This document shows positions 47,498 through 54,839 of a DNA stretch of 56,558 nucleotides, one piece after another. The position numbers and the translations under genes were made by a program. Each line of letters begins with the position of its first letter. Position 1 is the stretch's first letter. The notes below the pieces were generated by a model that was not told the origin of the DNA, searched no databases, and saw nothing but the letters and a program-made list of their open reading frames with translations. Origin of the DNA: Ignavibacteria bacterium. Lineage in GTDB: Bacteria > Bacteroidota > Ignavibacteria > Kapaibacteriales > UBA2268. The stretch covers positions 1 to 56,558 of the forward strand of contig JAOADV010000014.1 in NCBI GenBank assembly GCA_026417135.1, in the 5' to 3' direction.

Positions 47498-49744
47498 TTA
47501 GCGAACAATTCGTAGTGGAACTACGTAAGTTTCATAATTGGTTATTAAACGAACCAAATAACTTCCCGCAGAAAAGTTTTCCGTGCTTATGCCAAACGAG
47601 TTTTCTCCCGATTGTAGTAGTCCAAGATAATCGGAAACAAGCAATTTGCCATTTATGTCGGAAATTTCGATAAAGACTTCGCTTGTTCTTTCGAGGAAGA
47701 ACGTGATTTTTACTTCGTTTGCTGCTGGGTTGGGTATGAGTTTAACATTTGAATCCTCGTTTGGTCGGATTAGTTCGACTGGAACTGATGTAATTTGATG
47801 TGTTATCCGAGCTGTATCTGAGATAAGTGGATTACCTTCTGCGTCGTAGAAAGTGATATTGACACGAGGTGTATCTGGCGTGGGCTGGTTCGCAGCGAAA
47901 GTAGCACGCAAACTCCAAGGCTTTTTAACGGGTTTTATTGAGGCGTCGCATCCTAAATCGACGAGAGCCCAGTCTTTTTGAATTGTAGTATTCCCATTCC
48001 ACGCGCGGTATCTTCCGCTTTCACGCTCTTCTCGGGAAAGTCCATCATCGACACTTACTCCTACAATATTCCAGGCAGACGAGGTTGATGTCAAGCTTGC
48101 AGAACAGGCTTGCAAATCGTTGCTTCCGGGGACAAGGGCGGAATCGATTTTCGCTTCCACCATACGGGCGGACCGAATAGTCGGTGGTACTATTGTAACG
48201 CCGTTGTTGATTGGTACTGGCACAGCACCAATGCATAACTTGGGATTCGGTTTTGCACACCAATTTTCATAAATTACTGTACAAGTATCGCCGTCGCAGT
48301 GTACAACAGAAATTACAACACTACCGCTCCAGTTTAGAGTGTAGTCAACGCCTAAGTTGAATTCTACGGTATTGTTTGCTGCCAAGCCTTGTGGGGCATT
48401 TGTTCCAGCAGCACAAGCCAAACTGACTTTGCTATACGATGGCGTTCCACTATTTGCGACGCCCCAAATACGATTACCACCATCGACTTTTAGACCTCCA
48501 CCGTTCCATTTAAATGTTGCATTGCCTGGATTTGGGTCGGGGGTGAATTGAATAAGTACGTCTTTTATTGGGGATGCTGGTTGTTTAAGATTAAATATTT
48601 TAAATGTTCGCCCAGAAAGGTTCAATCCAGCCCAAACAAATGGTGAAACAGAAAGACTATCGCAACGAGTAATCAATGGTCTTGGGCACTTCAAAACAAT
48701 TGAATCACAGCAGGTTACAGTAATACCCTGAGGAGTGGCAACTTTTACACAAAGATATAAGGTAACAACGCCGGAGGCTGTTGTGGGAGTTATTTCTCCA
48801 GAAAGTGCAAATGGTTGGTTGCAAGGTGGAGAAAAGATGAAATTGCCACTAACAGAATTATGTATATTGGTGGGATTCGTTGTATAAGAACAACCTAAGG
48901 CGTACATCGTATCCAAGAGCCCACCAGCAATTGAATATGTAAGGTCTAATATTTGAAAGCCTTGAGAAGGAAGAGGAACTCTCCAACGGAAAGCACAGCA
49001 ATTGTTGTCGATTTCCGGTTTAGATTGTCCCCAGATTTCCCTACAAAAGCCAGCAGCAAAAGGTGGTTCACAACCCCAACAGAAATTATCTACGTAAAGC
49101 CTTTCGCTGGGGGAGCTGTGATAATCTGCCGCAAAAGTTATTCCACTTACATTCGAAATTAATGTATTCCAAGCGGTACAAGTATCCATTCCCGAAGGTA
49201 TTTGAACAAGTTCCCACGAATAATTTGAATTTGATGGGAGCTTCCCATTTCGGCAAGAATCAATTGGCAGACAAATGTTATACCAAACATCTTCTTGCAT
49301 ATTTGGAGCACCTGGTAAAGCAATTAATTTAGCTGTTATTGTTCGATTATTCCAATTAGGTCCGTGCCAAACCCTTATGATTGGCACTTTCCAAGTTGGA
49401 GGTGGATATGGAGGATAGCCAAGGTCGAGCATCCAATCGAAACACAAGCAGCCACCTCTTTTGACCCAATTTCCCCTAAAAAAATTACTGTTACTTATTG
49501 CAAGCGAAGGACCGCCAGGCGAATCAACGAATTGTAAACAAGGCGTGGTATGTCCACCCGGTGGATATTGAATCCAAGTACAAGTTGAAACAGTGCAAAT
49601 CCATTGAGCACAATGGTCAACGCCAGCCGAATCGAATTTAAGACAATCGGTTTGTGCCGTCGCCGACGAAGAGAAAAGGAACAGATACAGAGCAGAGAAT
49701 ATCGAGATGAAGAGAGAATTGAGTTGATTGTGTGAACGAGTCAT
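47498..49744 (-). CDS. Secreted protein with T9SS sorting domain, laminin-B-like N-terminus
   Basis: 748 residues from the ATG at 49744 (MTRSHNQLNSLFISIFSALY, signal peptide ending near TAQ). An upstream in-frame codon at 49786 would add an unlike stretch. The mature N-terminal half is rich in Cys and Trp, with FRGNWVKRGGCLCFDWMLDL and RLYVDNFCWGCE, resembling laminin B or carbohydrate-binding beta sandwiches. Later repeats look Ig-like with paired cysteines. The C-terminal 80 residues are a type A sorting domain (KLIPNPAANEVKITFFLERT; ISDINGKLL; FSAGSYLVRLI). AGGAG four bases before the ATG gives good initiation. Likely a surface or adhesion protein. It has its own terminator. Confidence 0.82.
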   Translation of the reverse strand: MTRSHNQLNSLFISIFSALYLFLFSSSATAQTDCLKFDSAGVDHCAQWICTVSTCTWIQYPPGGHTTPCLQFVDSPGGPSLAISNSNFFRGNWVKRGGCLCFDWMLDLGYPPYPPPTWKVPIIRVWHGPNWNNRTITAKLIALPGAPNMQEDVWYNICLPIDSCRNGKLPSNSNYSWELVQIPSGMDTCTAWNTLISNVSGITFAADYHSSPSERLYVDNFCWGCEPPFAAGFCREIWGQSKPEIDNNCCAFRWRVPLPSQGFQILDLTYSIAGGLLDTMYALGCSYTTNPTNIHNSVSGNFIFSPPCNQPFALSGEITPTTASGVVTLYLCVKVATPQGITVTCCDSIVLKCPRPLITRCDSLSVSPFVWAGLNLSGRTFKIFNLKQPASPIKDVLIQFTPDPNPGNATFKWNGGGLKVDGGNRIWGVANSGTPSYSKVSLACAAGTNAPQGLAANNTVEFNLGVDYTLNWSGSVVISVVHCDGDTCTVIYENWCAKPNPKLCIGAVPVPINNGVTIVPPTIRSARMVEAKIDSALVPGSNDLQACSASLTSTSSAWNIVGVSVDDGLSREERESGRYRAWNGNTTIQKDWALVDLGCDASIKPVKKPWSLRATFAANQPTPDTPRVNITFYDAEGNPLISDTARITHQITSVPVELIRPNEDSNVKLIPNPAANEVKITFFLERTSEVFIEISDINGKLLVSDYLGLLQSGENSFGISTENFSAGSYLVRLITNYETYVVPLRIVR

Positions 49745-49756
49745 TTTTACTCCTAT

Positions 49757-49771
49757 GTTTGTTGAACAAAC
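49757..49771. promoter_or_regulatory. 15-bp palindrome upstream of the T9SS-exported protein gene
   Basis: GTTTGTTGAACAAAC has two 7-base arms around a single G and lies just ahead of the AGGAG ribosome site of the minus-strand gene. It could be an operator or an mRNA hairpin controlling translation. The rest of the 373-base divergent gap to 50118 is AT-rich, with no other clear signal. Confidence 0.35.
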
Positions 49772-50117
49772 CCGAAAAAATACCAACTAATTTCAATATA
49801 GAGCTCAATTTAAAAATTCCACTTAATCTTAGCTTTAATTTTTAGGGTCTGGTTTTTGTAGGCTCGAAGCAACTGCGCGTTGTTTGCAAGAACTTCAGAT
49901 TATTAACATTCTTTAGAGGTTATTTTTCCGAGCTAGTACTCCCATTCCCTAAATTATAGAATTTTAAGTTAAGCAAACAAAATTTTTTGCATACTTAAAA
50001 ATGCAATTTAAAATAAAATTTTTAATTCTCCAAACATTTTTTCTTAAAATTTTGTTTAAACTTTCTGAATATTTCACCTTTAGTTTTGCTCCTTTAATGT
50101 TTCAATAACAGATATTT

Positions 50118-52901
50118 GTGTTTCGCAAGACTTTATTTACTAAGAGATACATCACTTTGCCCTTTAAATTGCTTCTATGGGTGTTTCTTTCATTATTGAG
50201 TTTTTTCTTATTCCTTTACATTTGGTCGCCAGTGTATATTTTCCCCGAACCTAAACCTTTCGAAGGAAGAAGATATTATAATCCCTACGAACAAATCGAT
50301 ACACTACAATGCCTAAGAGCGAACTTTCACGCACACACAAACAGTTGGTTTGGATTGACTAATGGAGCTGGAACTGAACAACAACTTTACAACACATATT
50401 CATTGTTGGGTTATGATATTATTGGAATTTCGAATTACCAAAGAATCACCGAAGGTGCCACACTTGGTGGCGAAAAGATGAGTATATACGAGCACGGCTA
50501 CAACATACCAAAAATTCACCATCTTGTTTTCGGTGCTAAAAATGTCAATTGGCTTGATTTTATTTTTTGGCAGGATTTAAACCACAAGCAGTACGTGATT
50601 AACAGCTTGAAAACAGACGCTTCTTTAATAGTTATCAATCACCCAAAATTTAGTTTGTCGTTGCCACCAAGTGATTTTAAATATCTAACCCAATACGAAT
50701 GTATTGAAGTTTTGAATACCTATCGTAACTCGGCTGAATACTGGGACTCCGCTCTTTCTGCAGGAAATCCTGTCTTTATTATTGCTAATGATGATGCACA
50801 CGACGTCTCGAAAATAAAAGAAATAGCAAGATGCATTACCTTTGTTTACTCACAATCTAAATATGAGAATGTTGTTCGCTCCTTAAAAGAAGGAAAAGCT
50901 TACGGTGTTCAACTATTTAATAGTGACGACGACTTGATTTCGACTAAACGGATTAGACTTGATACTTTGCCGAAGCTTAAATTTATTAAGATGGTTGGCG
51001 ACACTTTGAAATTTGAACTCACAAAAAATGTCGAAGAAATCCGTTTTATTGGGCAGTTTGGGAAATTGAAGTATAAAATTAATAATGTTAACTTCTCTAA
51101 TTATATTTTCCAAGATAAGGATACTTACATTCGAATAGAAGCGGAAACATACGATGGCTCGATATTATATTTTAACCCAGTATTTAGATATTCGGAAAAG
51201 CCTTTGGAAACAAGAAAAGCCGAGATAGATATTTGGAAAACAAATTTAAAAAGATTTTTTTCCCTACTGATTATTTCTGCAACACTGTTTTTCGTTTTGT
51301 TTCGATTAATGAATAGATTTAAAGTTAACCTTGTTGAAAACTCAACTGTTAATCTTCGGCGTTTAGGATACTTTTTACTTGCCATCTCTTTTGTAGTAAG
51401 AGCATTTTTGGCATACAATCTTGAACTTGGCAATGATGAAGTTTACTATGTGCTGTATGCTAAATATCCAGATTTTAGTCATTTCGACCATCCTCCAATG
51501 GTTGGATGGCTAATCCAGTTGTTTTCGTTAAATCTTGTGTTAAACAATGAATTTTTCATACGATTATCCTCGGTAGTTTTAGGAACAGCAAATACAATTT
51601 TGATATATAAGATAGGTAGCTTGTTAAAGGATGAAAAAGCTGGTTTTTTGTCTGCGATTTTATTTAATACCTCTTTTTACGGTTTTATTATAGTTGGTGT
51701 TTTCATTTTGCCCGATACACCTTTGGTTTTTTTCTGGATATTGTCGATTTACCTTTTAGTTCAAGCACTTGATAAAGAAAAAATAACGAAAACGGAAGAG
51801 AATTTGCTACTTTTGGCTGGTTTAACAATTGGTTTGGCTATCCTTTCTAAATATACTGGGTTTTATATTTGGATTGGTGCTGTAATCTACATTCTTCTTT
51901 TCAATCGGCAATGGTTGAAAAACAAAAAACTATACTTAAGCCTTCTAATAACCTTAATTTGTTCTATACCGATATTATACTGGAATTTTCAAAACAATTT
52001 CATTAGTTTCTCATTTCACAGCCAAAGGGTAGGGGAAAACTTCTATTCAATCCGAACCGACTTCTTTTTCCGAGAAATTTTGGGTCAGATTTTCTACCAA
52101 AATCCTATTAACTTTTTCATAATATTGTTTGCAATTAAGGCATCTTTTAGTCTAAAATTTCAACATTATAATCGCAAAATTATTATGTTGTATTTGTGGG
52201 GTTTTCCCCTTGTTTTAACTTTTCTACTTATTTCGTTGTTTAAACCGACACTTCCACATTGGAGTGGTCCTGCTTTTGTATCTTTCATTCTTATTGCTGG
52301 AACAACATTATCGGAATTGCATCCGACTTCCCTTTTTCCGAAAAGAGTAAAATTTGCTGTAATAGTGCTGTTCCTAATTGTTGTAACTGGTTTTCTACAA
52401 ATAAATTTTGGTTTATTTAAACTACCAGTAAAAAACGATAATGATATTTCTTCCTATGCCAAAGACGATATAACAGCGGATATGTATGGATGGCGAATGA
52501 TATCCGAAAAATTAGCCGAAAAAATTAATAAAAAAGAAAATAAAGAACTTGCTGGTATAAGCTCAATTGTTCACTATCGTTGGTTCCCCGGCGCCCATAT
52601 TGATTATTATATTTCGAGTAGGCTCGACCTTCCGCTATATGTAATTGGAGATGTAGATAACATTCACAAGTATCATTGGATTCAGCTACGAAGCCCATTT
52701 TTAGAGCCCAACGAGGATGTCTTGTATATCACAAATGCTCGTTATTACAAATCCCCAACAGATGCTTTCGCTGGCCAATTTGAATCAATTCTTCCAGTAG
52801 ATACAATCCCAGTTTTCCGTGACGCTGAAATCGTAAATTACTATTTTATATATAAGATGAAAAATTATATTCCGTTGAAATTTGGTAAGGTCAATCATTA
52901 G
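50118..52901 (+). CDS. Fusion of PHP-type phosphoesterase and GT39-family glycosyltransferase
   Basis: 927 residues, GTG start. After an N-terminal membrane helix (about 17-37), residues 65-260 look like a PHP metal-dependent domain: H71/H73 (NFHAHT), H125, H176 (VINHPKF) and DDAHD at 225-229. A beta-rich linker (280-360) and a second membrane helix (about 380-397) lead to a GT39/ArnT-like multi-helix enzyme: GNDEVYY at 438-444 with the catalytic acidic pair, SHFDHPPMVGWLIQLF at 454-469, VFILPDTPLVFFWIL, LSKYTGFYIW and FKPTLPHWSGPA. A short periplasmic C-terminus follows. GT39 enzymes move sugars from polyprenyl phosphates onto proteins or lipids. A PHP domain on the same chain is unexpected. 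Confidence 0.8.
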   Translation: MFRKTLFTKRYITLPFKLLLWVFLSLLSFFLFLYIWSPVYIFPEPKPFEGRRYYNPYEQIDTLQCLRANFHAHTNSWFGLTNGAGTEQQLYNTYSLLGYDIIGISNYQRITEGATLGGEKMSIYEHGYNIPKIHHLVFGAKNVNWLDFIFWQDLNHKQYVINSLKTDASLIVINHPKFSLSLPPSDFKYLTQYECIEVLNTYRNSAEYWDSALSAGNPVFIIANDDAHDVSKIKEIARCITFVYSQSKYENVVRSLKEGKAYGVQLFNSDDDLISTKRIRLDTLPKLKFIKMVGDTLKFELTKNVEEIRFIGQFGKLKYKINNVNFSNYIFQDKDTYIRIEAETYDGSILYFNPVFRYSEKPLETRKAEIDIWKTNLKRFFSLLIISATLFFVLFRLMNRFKVNLVENSTVNLRRLGYFLLAISFVVRAFLAYNLELGNDEVYYVLYAKYPDFSHFDHPPMVGWLIQLFSLNLVLNNEFFIRLSSVVLGTANTILIYKIGSLLKDEKAGFLSAILFNTSFYGFIIVGVFILPDTPLVFFWILSIYLLVQALDKEKITKTEENLLLLAGLTIGLAILSKYTGFYIWIGAVIYILLFNRQWLKNKKLYLSLLITLICSIPILYWNFQNNFISFSFHSQRVGENFYSIRTDFFFREILGQIFYQNPINFFIILFAIKASFSLKFQHYNRKIIMLYLWGFPLVLTFLLISLFKPTLPHWSGPAFVSFILIAGTTLSELHPTSLFPKRVKFAVIVLFLIVVTGFLQINFGLFKLPVKNDNDISSYAKDDITADMYGWRMISEKLAEKINKKENKELAGISSIVHYRWFPGAHIDYYISSRLDLPLYVIGDVDNIHKYHWIQLRSPFLEPNEDVLYITNARYYKSPTDAFAGQFESILPVDTIPVFRDAEIVNYYFIYKMKNYIPLKFGKVNH

Positions 52902-53531: not shown

Positions 53532-54839
53532 CTATATGTAACCCCGCTCAATACCCCATTGTTCAATGGTTTTAACATCATCGGAGTTCACTGAGGGTTT
53601 AAAATTACTAATTGCTTCGGACAAATCATCAAAGGTAATAATTGCGTCCCCGTAATTCCTTCGTTCGAAAGCGAAATAGGCGGCTTCTTCAATAATCCCC
53701 AAAATATCTGCCCCTGAAAAACCATTTAATTTGCGAGATAGCAAAGAAAGTTGCTTATCTTCCAGTAAATCATTTTCACAAGCTCTATTGCTTAAATGAA
53801 TCTTTAAAATCTCTTTTCTAGATTCAAAGTCGGGGAGAGGAACGTAAAATACTTTATCAAATCTACCAGACCTCAGAAACGCTGGGTCAATCAAATGTGG
53901 TTTATTAGTAGCGGCAATAATAACTACAGGCTTCTTTCTATCTTTAAAAATCTGACTAACTTGAGCAAGTAAGGTTGGGATAACTCTTTGCATTACTGAT
54001 GATGTCAAATTATCTCTTCTACAGAGTATCCATTCTGCCTCATCTAAGAACAATATTGCTCTTGGTTCACGACGGAGAAAATTAAATATCAACTCTATTT
54101 TCTTTTCAGCTTCGCCAGGAAAACCAACAATAATTGAAGGGTTAATTTCATAAAACTTGGCCTCGATATGATTAGAAATAGCTTCAGCAATTAGAGTTTT
54201 ACCAGTTCCAGGGGGACCGAATAAAAGGATTCCACCCCCAACCCGTAGCCCTAGTATCTCGGCATATTTAACATCTTGGTATGGTTCAATTATTCTTTTT
54301 TTAATGAAATCCTTAATCTCTTTCAAACCTGCAACTTGGTCTAATGAAACAGAAGGTTCTTTGTCAAATGTTTGTTGTATTAATTGTGTATTAATATTTT
54401 CAGAAGTTAATAACTTATAAAAATCGCTTGACTTTTCATATAAAAGCCCGATGATTTTTTCGGTTATTTCTGAACCATAAGTTCCATGCTCTAAGAAACG
54501 TAAGTTTTTATCTGGAAGGTATTTTATCTTTAAAAACCTGGATAGCAATGTTGTAGCATTATTAATTTTTTTTACCTCACCAATTGGTTTAACTTTAACT
54601 TGATAAGGAAATTTTCCTCCAAATAGTTCTGAAGATTGTACAAATTTAATTGGTTCGGTTGCAATGAAAGGACCATATAAAATATCTTGGCTTACATTTA
54701 TTAAAAAACCTATGTATCCTTTCTTCAAGTCAGAATAAGCCCATTTGTAATTCGTTGCAAGGACATTGTTGGCTAAACATTCACTCTCTGTGGAGTTTGT
54801 ACAATACATTACAAAACAAGGTAAATTAATTTGTTCCAT
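53532..54839 (-). CDS. AAA ATPase with N-terminal DCD/PUA-like domain
   Basis: 435 residues. Residues 1 to about 105 resemble a DCD (or related PUA/EVE-type) domain: CTNSTESECLANN (13-25), then GYIGFLI (41-47), ILYGPFIATEP and the diagnostic FGGKFPYQVKV (73-83, compare PAQV). A helical linker follows. A single classical AAA module has Walker A GPPGTGKT (208-215), Walker B ILFLDEAE (with D266-E267), sensor N312, arginine fingers in RSGRFD and the AAA lid helices near 365-395 (GFSGADILGIIEEAAYFAFE). It is the p97/Vps4-like type, used to remodel proteins. The start is ATG, with no ribosome site. It is isolated, with gene-poor DNA on both sides, as in accessory regions. Confidence 0.82.
   Translation of the reverse strand: MEQINLPCFVMYCTNSTESECLANNVLATNYKWAYSDLKKGYIGFLINVSQDILYGPFIATEPIKFVQSSELFGGKFPYQVKVKPIGEVKKINNATTLLSRFLKIKYLPDKNLRFLEHGTYGSEITEKIIGLLYEKSSDFYKLLTSENINTQLIQQTFDKEPSVSLDQVAGLKEIKDFIKKRIIEPYQDVKYAEILGLRVGGGILLFGPPGTGKTLIAEAISNHIEAKFYEINPSIIVGFPGEAEKKIELIFNFLRREPRAILFLDEAEWILCRRDNLTSSVMQRVIPTLLAQVSQIFKDRKKPVVIIAATNKPHLIDPAFLRSGRFDKVFYVPLPDFESRKEILKIHLSNRACENDLLEDKQLSLLSRKLNGFSGADILGIIEEAAYFAFERRNYGDAIITFDDLSEAISNFKPSVNSDDVKTIEQWGIERGYI

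What the first reader, a model, noticed from the sequence alone, without database searches (positions are those of the whole stretch)
50118..52901. PHP phosphoesterase domain fused to a GT39-type membrane glycosyltransferase
One chain joins a PHP-like HxH metal domain to an ArnT/PMT-like enzyme, with a membrane helix on each side of the PHP domain so that it would face the same compartment as the glycosyl-transfer active site. A hydrolase acting on the lipid-phosphate donor, product or acceptor of the transferase would be a new pairing.
Basis: partly seen in the sequence, partly recalled or inferred. Interest (0 to 1): 0.6.

Follow-up and report, generated by a model that had tools for sequence, protein, structure and literature searches.

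The report
PHP-like domain joined to membrane glycosyltransferase
A protein in this bacterium joins a periplasm-facing relative of PHP metal hydrolases to a sugar-transferring membrane enzyme; related bacteria repeatedly keep the two as neighbouring genes, which points to a shared job in decorating the cell envelope, although that job has not been shown.

Summary
Window 50118-52901 is one open frame of 927 codons: membrane helix, PHP-like domain of CehA/McbA type, membrane helix, PMT_2 (ArnT/GT39-like) glycosyltransferase. The PHP-like half belongs to a double-anchored clade (38 genomes found here). In 16 of 38 a PMT_2 gene is fused or adjacent, in five arrangements and with two deeply split PMT_2 types, although 28 of these genomes carry only 1-7 PMT_2 genes each. 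In 15 PHP-less loci the same transferase type has a PAP2 phosphatase beside it or one gene away in 8; in two PHP-bearing genomes it is also fused to a GDPD domain. So the pairing is a recurrent link, most likely hydrolysis of a lipid-linked phosphate coupled to periplasmic glycosyl transfer. Against plain phosphatase activity: the fourth canonical metal ligand (His) is Tyr in 34 of 34 members aligned, and HxH is QxQ in 6 of them, QxH in one. The single chain is seen only here: in 33 of 33 assessable relatives the PHP-like part is its own gene, and a one-base slip near the join could mimic the fusion. Verdict: new variant of a known kind; pairing solid, fusion probable, chemistry inferred.

The parts
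50118..52901 (+). fused open frame, 927 codons, GTG start; lone gene between two genes on the other strand
50148..50246 (+). N-terminal membrane helix (within residues 11-43); residues 1-17 hold 5 Lys/Arg and 0 Asp/Glu
   Evidence: hydropathy
50313..50912 (+). PHP-like (CehA/McbA-type) domain, about residues 66-265
   Evidence: NF038032, hhalign
50328..50336 (+). motif I H71-A-H73 (ligands 1 and 2)
   Evidence: alignment of 28: His in 22, Gln in 6
50430..50438 (+). motif II S105-N106-Y107, in place of S/T-D/E-H
   Evidence: Tyr in 28 of 28 and 6 of 6 hold-out members; His in 3 of 3 soluble outgroups
50490..50519 (+). E125-H126-G ... K132 ... H134 (ligands 5 and 6; H126 and K132 not in the soluble outgroups)
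   Evidence: all four 28 of 28; hold-out E125, K132, H134 6 of 6, H126 5 of 6
50640..50645 (+). H175-P176 (ligand 7)
   Evidence: 28 of 28
50790..50801 (+). D225-D226-x-H228 (ligands 8 and 9)
   Evidence: D226 28 of 28, H228 27 of 28
50955..51188 (+). conserved stretch (FIGQxG ... YIR ... NP), about residues 280-357, also in the soluble relatives
51243..51320 (+). second membrane helix (residues 376-401), matching the C-terminal anchor of stand-alone relatives
51309..51311 (+). in-frame ATG (M398), the only ATG near the join that could start the transferase on its own
51351..52898 (+). PMT_2/ArnT-like transferase, residues 412-927 (Pfam match 51486-51983)
   Evidence: alignment
51435..51440 (+). 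D440-E441 after the first transferase helix, position of the proposed catalytic Asp of GT-C enzymes
   Evidence: invariant in 4 of 4 aligned; role by analogy (PMC11127046 passages)

Best explanation
A periplasmic glycosylation module of two parts. The PMT_2/ArnT-like half takes a sugar from a polyprenyl-phosphate carrier on the outer side of the inner membrane and gives it to an acceptor. The PHP-like half, held by a helix at each end so that it faces the same side, is a metal-dependent hydrolase with a reduced (two-metal or fewer) site; it removes a phosphate (or splits a phosphodiester) from a lipid-linked partner of the same pathway, most likely the acceptor lipid before glycosylation or the spent carrier after it. 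In relatives without PHP a PAP2 phosphatase often stands in the same place. Shown here: domain make-up, clade, gene linkage, residue conservation. Inferred: topology, hydrolysis, substrate, order of steps.
For: Linkage: PMT_2 fused or adjacent in 16 of 38 clade genomes, while the 28 genomes scanned for PF13231 hold 85 matches in all, 1-7 each. Hold-out set fetched after the claim: 9 new members, 6 assessable, 3 linked. PHP is paired with two deeply split PMT_2 branches (100/100 support). G610 (L111) has GT2 synthase-like, PHP, PMT_2 in that order on one strand; GT2 synthase-like genes also lie beside PHP in G250, G343, G235 and near it in G347. GtrA-type genes flank the same transferase type in L083, L084, L085, L089. 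PAP2 is beside it or one gene away in 8 of 15 PHP-less loci against 0 of 8 PHP-linked (Fisher p 0.019, not corrected for relatedness). A GDPD domain is fused to it in L121 and L126, which also have PHP. Ligands 5, 6, 7 and 8 are invariant in 28 of 28, including the two carboxylate positions that in Mtb DnaE1 hold the metals and are thought to activate water (PMC5636811 passages). Analogue: in Oligotropha rgtE, lpxE and rgtF carry consecutive tags c19730-c19750 (Table 4 of PMC7663294, passages).
Against: No activity, structure or phenotype. Motif-II His is Tyr in 34 of 34 members aligned; H71/H73 are Gln in 6 of 28, three of them transferase-linked, and H71 is Gln in one hold-out member. 22 of 38 clade genomes show no PMT_2 neighbour (3 of these are cut by contig ends). 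The PAP2-for-PHP swap rests on few, related loci: on the transferase tree the well-supported branches force only one change of the PHP or PAP2 label. GDPD accompanies PHP and does not replace it. The nearest named family, CehA/McbA, is known from titles as carbamate hydrolases (listing).
Confidence: 0.42

Rival explanations
1. The PHP-like part no longer catalyses anything; it is a periplasmic binding or scaffolding domain that holds the transferase, its acceptor or the lipid head group, as the degenerate PHP domain of E. coli Pol III has a structural role.
For: Motif-II Tyr in 34 of 34 members aligned, QxQ in 6 of 28, position 3 not conserved; precedent in PMC3666897 (passages).
Against: Ligands 5-8 are invariant in 28 of 28 including both carboxylates; 22 of 28 keep HxH. 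A pure scaffold would not need them.
Confidence: 0.22
2. The PHP-like part is a hydrolase of an ester or amide (deacylase/deacetylase), working on the sugar donor or acceptor as ArnD or NaxD do in other pathways, not a phosphatase.
For: Closest curated family is CehA/McbA, known from listed titles as carbamate hydrolases. The ArnD/NaxD roles are recalled, not from a call.
Against: The partner seen beside the same transferase where PHP is absent is a PAP2 phosphatase, and the domain fused to it in two PHP-bearing genomes is a phosphodiesterase.
Confidence: 0.2
3. The hydrolase acts on the lipid-linked donor (removing a sugar phosphate before transfer), as the phosphatase does in pentofuranose donor synthesis.
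For: A phosphatase for a polyprenyl-linked pentose phosphate is described in PMC11127046 (passages); a GT2 synthase-like gene lies beside or near PHP in five genomes.
Against: In the Citrobacter system the phosphatase is HAD-type and part of the donor synthase; no such synthase was recognised among the PHP neighbours that I scanned by Pfam, which is a part of all neighbours.
Confidence: 0.12
4. The single chain is not real: one inserted or lost base in the contig joins two genes that are separate in the cell. (This concerns the join only and does not compete with the mechanisms above.)
For: In 33 of 33 assessable relatives the PHP-like part is a frame of its own; in 9 of 9 PHP-first co-directional pairs the two genes are in different frames; 120 of the one-base slips tried before ATG 51309 would end the PHP part at 390 or more residues and leave the transferase to start there.
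Against: 120 of 120 such slips leave at most one Lys/Arg behind the second helix (3 in the frame as it stands), while 26 of 26 full-length kin have two or more there (a slightly different count window); the frame is open without a stop.
Confidence: 0.3

Closest known systems
CehA/McbA family metallohydrolases (NF038032) and the PHP superfamily
   Same: Sequence kin over the whole domain (17 of 17 match; hhalign 99.8); ligands 1, 2 and 5-9 kept in the window protein
   Different: Window protein is below the family cut-off (39.6 of 80 bits); two membrane anchors; Tyr for His in motif II; new Y-E-H-G ... K-x-H block; linkage to a PMT_2 enzyme
ArnT / RgtD / RgtF (PMT_2-type, polyprenyl-phosphate-sugar transferases)
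   Same: PMT_2 domain; acidic residues after the first helix; GtrA or GT2 synthase-like neighbours in relatives
   Different: ArnT model scores 23.9 against a cut-off of 567; donor and acceptor unknown
LpxE/LpxF and other PAP2 lipid phosphatases
   Same: PAP2 genes occupy the place beside the same transferase type in 8 of 15 PHP-less loci; rgtE-lpxE-rgtF tags in Oligotropha mirror GT2-PHP-PMT_2 in G610
   Different: Different family; PAP2 activity is independent of cations (PMC6581854 section 6), PHP enzymes use metals. Whether the PAP2 neighbours are LpxE/LpxF was not tested
PHP domain of E. coli DNA polymerase III
   Same: PHP domain that lost metal ligands and is part of a larger enzyme (PMC3666897, passages)
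   Different: Cytoplasmic and polymerase-linked; five of nine ligands replaced
Three-component pentofuranose systems (Citrobacter ORF12-15)
   Same: Extracytoplasmic GT-C transfer with a phosphatase in the pathway, one of its enzymes two-domain (PMC11127046, passages)
   Different: Phosphatase is HAD-type and belongs to the donor synthase, not to the GT-C enzyme

Membership tests
PHP superfamily (PF02811) | Match to the Pfam model | tested here: not met
   No hit in the window protein; 1 of 17 members of A3 at E 0.03
PHP superfamily | Nine metal ligands (H, H, D/H, H, E, H, C/H, D/N, H) | tested here: not met
   Seven of nine in the window; Asn82 at position 3, Tyr107 at position 4
CehA/McbA metallohydrolases (NF038032) | Score above the curated cut-off of 80 bits | tested here: not met
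   39.6 bits, E 4e-10; homologous, but the window protein stays outside the named family
PHP / CehA-McbA fold | Fold of the domain | tested here: inconclusive
   Models too poor to use; sequence chain positive
PMT_2 (PF13231) | Score above the gathering cut-off of 26.1 bits | tested here: met
   105.6 bits, model positions 1-160 of 160
ArnT (NF009784) | Score above the curated cut-off of 567 bits | tested here: not met
   23.9 bits for residues 400-927
GT-C glycosyltransferase | Acidic residue in the first extracytoplasmic loop after helix 1 | tested here: inconclusive
   D440-E441 follow helix 1 and are invariant in 4 of 4 aligned; the side of the membrane is inferred
PAP2 lipid phosphatase | PAP2 model match | tested here: not met
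   None in the window protein
Lipid phosphatase by function | Phosphate release from a lipid | not testable with these tools
   Needs an assay

The most novel reading that the evidence does not exclude
A previously undescribed clade of double-anchored, periplasmic PHP-like hydrolases with a Tyr-for-His site replaces PAP2 phosphatases (LpxE/LpxF-type) as the phosphate-removing partner of polyprenyl-phosphate-sugar transferases, and in this species hydrolase and transferase have become one bifunctional chain that swaps a phosphate for a sugar on the same lipid.
Probability: 0.22. Interest if true: 0.72.

Novelty: new variant of a known kind. Interest (0 to 1): 0.5.

Why it matters
If true, it adds PHP to PAP2 and GDPD as phosphoesterase folds that pair with polyprenyl-phosphate-sugar transferases at the bacterial surface, and gives a clade of membrane proteins without a known role a testable one. 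The fused protein, if real, would be a convenient single polypeptide in which to look for substrate hand-over. It also shows a PHP-type site in the course of losing some ligands while keeping others strictly.

Tried and rejected
Structure: two AlphaFold jobs (PHP part with L019; whole protein with L018 and L019) gave pLDDT 38.2 and 42.7; not used, and no fold search was run. PDB sequence searches with the PHP part alone found nothing at E 1 or better, and with the A4 profile nothing meaningful (best E 0.057, a designed barrel). The transferase alone gave one chance hit; the A2 profile touched PMT 6p25 and ArnT 5ezm only weakly (0.021, 0.04).

Considered and dropped: chance neighbourhood (against it: recurrence and the low PMT_2 copy number); the idea that Aquifex lacks any lipid A phosphatase and might use PHP (PMC7663294 passages speak of unknown phosphatases, but PMC6581854 section 6 reports a PAP2-type LpxE there); invariance of HxH (true in the first 14 members, broken in the next 14); GtrA as the 124-aa neighbour in G800 and G838 (no Pfam match at E 0.001); GDPD as a substitute for PHP (it occurs together with PHP).

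Rows left out of counts: G501 (broken frame) from the PHP tree, though it is one of the 28 rows; G592 from the 28-row alignment (split over two contigs); fragments in G835, G763, G794 from the hold-out count (contig ends). G736 and G820 were set aside as soluble outgroup type on score and range alone and not examined. The 15 PHP-less transferase loci are L018, L004 and the 13 strongest PHP-less matches; its weaker matches (E 1e-51 to 1e-31) were not followed. L004 counts as without PAP2 although its contig gives only about 480 bases before the transferase, and its genome was searched for PHP only with the single protein. Gene calls in the scripts took the first start codon, so overlaps quoted from them are upper limits. 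In G817, G800 and G838 the absence of PMT_2 rests on my transferase profiles and Pfam scans of some neighbours.

Bacteroidota is my inference from the T9SS-type sorting tail next door and the named kin (L018 Tenacibaculum, L019 Bacteroidales); the tool tells no kinship for those two.

Full report
What is there. The frame at 50118-52901 (+) is open for 927 codons from a GTG. It stands alone between a T9SS-tailed secreted protein (47498-49786, -) and an AAA+ ATPase (53532-54839, -). The transferase half is a clear PMT_2 protein (105.6 bits). The PHP half is a remote one: no Pfam PHP match, but NF038032 CehA/McbA at 4e-10, matched by 17 of 17 members of alignment A3. The profile of 14 clade members aligns over 268 columns with a profile of three soluble relatives at probability 99.8, and that profile reaches solved PHP-type proteins 2anu and 9etk. 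I take homology to PHP as shown by sequence and the fold as likely; the structure predictions failed.

Topology. Hydropathy gives a helix within residues 11-43, one at 376-401 and the first transferase helix at about 419-437. Residues 1-17 hold five Lys/Arg and no acidic residue. N-terminus inside, PHP outside, short inner link, then transferase helix 1 leading to the outer loop with D440-E441 is the simplest reading, and it puts both active sites on the periplasmic side. Other PHP proteins of the clade have the same two anchors: N-terminal helix in 28 of 28, C-terminal helix in 27 of 28 (best 19-residue hydropathy 1.1-2.7; the exception is the broken G501), followed by 2 or more Lys/Arg in those 27.

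A clade with its own site. 13 clade members came from a scan of 395 genomes of the phylum (16 matches, 3 of them soluble outgroups), 15 more from 249 genomes of the order of G081 (16 matches with G081 again), 9 more from 294 genomes of the class (24 matches, 12 already known, 3 set aside as outgroup type), and L019 from the named genome collection: 38 in all. In the 28 aligned, ligands 5, 6, 7 and 8 (E125, H134, H175, D226) are invariant, ligand 9 is kept in 27, ligands 1 and 2 are His in 22 and Gln in 6, ligand 3 is Asn in 17 and Asp in 7, and ligand 4 is Tyr in 28. The three soluble outgroups have His there. Six hold-out members agree on Tyr, but one of them has Gln for ligand 1. Position numbers follow Table 1 of PMC3666897 (passages read). 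In Mtb DnaE1 the position-5 Glu bridges two zincs and the position-8 Asp is proposed to activate water (PMC5636811, passages). So one side of the site is gone in this clade, the rest is mostly kept, and one sub-branch has gone further. That ligands 3, 4 and 9 hold the third metal is recalled from the YcdX structure and comes from no call.

The pairing. A PMT_2 gene is fused or adjacent in 16 of 38: the window (fused); PHP then PMT_2 in G025, G354, G277, G081, G455, G535, G493, G436, G610; PMT_2 then PHP in L019; back to back in G347; tail to tail in G592, G716, G751, G777. That is 12 genera by the tool's labels plus L019. In the 28 genomes scanned for PF13231 there are 85 matches, 1 to 7 each, and their positions confirm 12 linked and 16 unlinked genomes. 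Adjacency by chance would be expected in well under one genome (my estimate, taking a few thousand genes per genome). G716, G751 and G777 came from a set fetched after the claim was made (3 of 6 assessable, 9 in all). The PMT_2 partners fall in two branches split at 100/100. On the PHP tree the linked members need 4 changes for one PMT_2 type and 3 for the other, of which the well-supported branches force 2 each. Linkage in 16 also means none in 22, three of which are cut by contig ends.

Who else sits there. In G610 one strand reads GT2, PHP, PMT_2. Its GT2 is a close match to the one near PHP in G347; that one and those beside PHP in G250, G343 and G235 match polyprenyl-phosphate sugar synthase models far below their cut-offs. 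In the close transferase branch, 8 of 15 PHP-less loci have a PAP2 phosphatase, next to it in six and one GtrA gene away in two; four loci have GtrA. In L121 and L126, which also have PHP beside them, the transferase carries a GDPD domain. No PAP2 was found in the 8 PHP-linked loci of that branch then known (Fisher p 0.019) or in the two added later. The transferase tree does not settle how often partners were exchanged: its well-supported branches force one change only. Oligotropha has rgtE, lpxE and rgtF under consecutive tags (Table 4 of PMC7663294, passages), the same order of roles with PAP2 in place of PHP.

What it likely does. I read this as phosphate removal coupled to glycosyl transfer on the periplasmic side, with PHP and PAP2 as alternative hydrolases. 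Substrate and order of steps are open: acceptor lipid before transfer, carrier after it, or lipid-linked donor. The altered site leaves a real chance that part or all of the clade is non-catalytic, or cleaves an ester or amide as CehA/McbA enzymes do by the titles listed.

The single chain. In 33 of 33 assessable relatives the PHP-like part is a frame of its own (open frames up to 444 aa; four more are cut by contig ends), and in 9 of 9 PHP-first co-directional pairs the frames differ. Of the one-base slips tried before ATG 51309, 120 would end the PHP part at 390 or more residues and leave the transferase to begin there. Against a slip: 120 of 120 would leave at most one Lys/Arg behind the second helix, where 26 of 26 full-length kin have two or more. 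No second assembly was available. I put the fusion at about 0.7; the pairing does not depend on it. Contig C63 starts with 129 bases that differ at one position from window 52662-52790 and then diverges (23 differences in the next 83), so a second copy of at least the transferase end exists at a contig edge, 1.3 kb away from the join.

Literature. The papers listed by searches (15 of 33, 15 of 311, 1 of 1) include none whose title or abstract start describes a PHP domain fused to or paired with a PMT_2/ArnT-like transferase. I read passages of PMC7663294, PMC3666897, PMC5636811 and PMC11127046 and the outline and one section of PMC6581854; the rest were seen as listings only. Many subscription papers are not held.

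Verdict. A real and recurrent pairing; a probable fusion in one species; an inferred mechanism. New variant of a known kind, interest 0.5.

Noticed in passing
L121:2928-5195 (-), L126:814-3084 (-): PMT_2 transferase fused at its C-terminus to a GDPD phosphodiesterase domain in two genomes, each with the PHP gene beside it.
   Followed up: partly
window 53532-54839 (-): AAA+ ATPase with Cdc48/Vps4-like parts and an N-terminal match to the Development and Cell Death domain (PF10539, 5.2e-7, 29.9 bits against a cut-off of 27.8); that the domain is known from plants is recalled.
   Followed up: no
G000:C63:1-240 (L022): End of a second copy of the transferase at a contig edge: 129 bases with one difference from window 52662-52790, then 23 differences in 83.
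   Followed up: partly
L112, L115, L116, L117, L119, L120: Sub-branch of the PHP clade in which HxH is QxQ while motif II is S-D-Y.
   Followed up: partly
L113:5033-6211 (-): PHP gene of G501 is interrupted by a stop.
   Followed up: no
L020, L040, L041: Mur ligase gene directly behind PHP and PMT_2 in three genomes of one genus; that it is Mpl-like is recalled.
   Followed up: no
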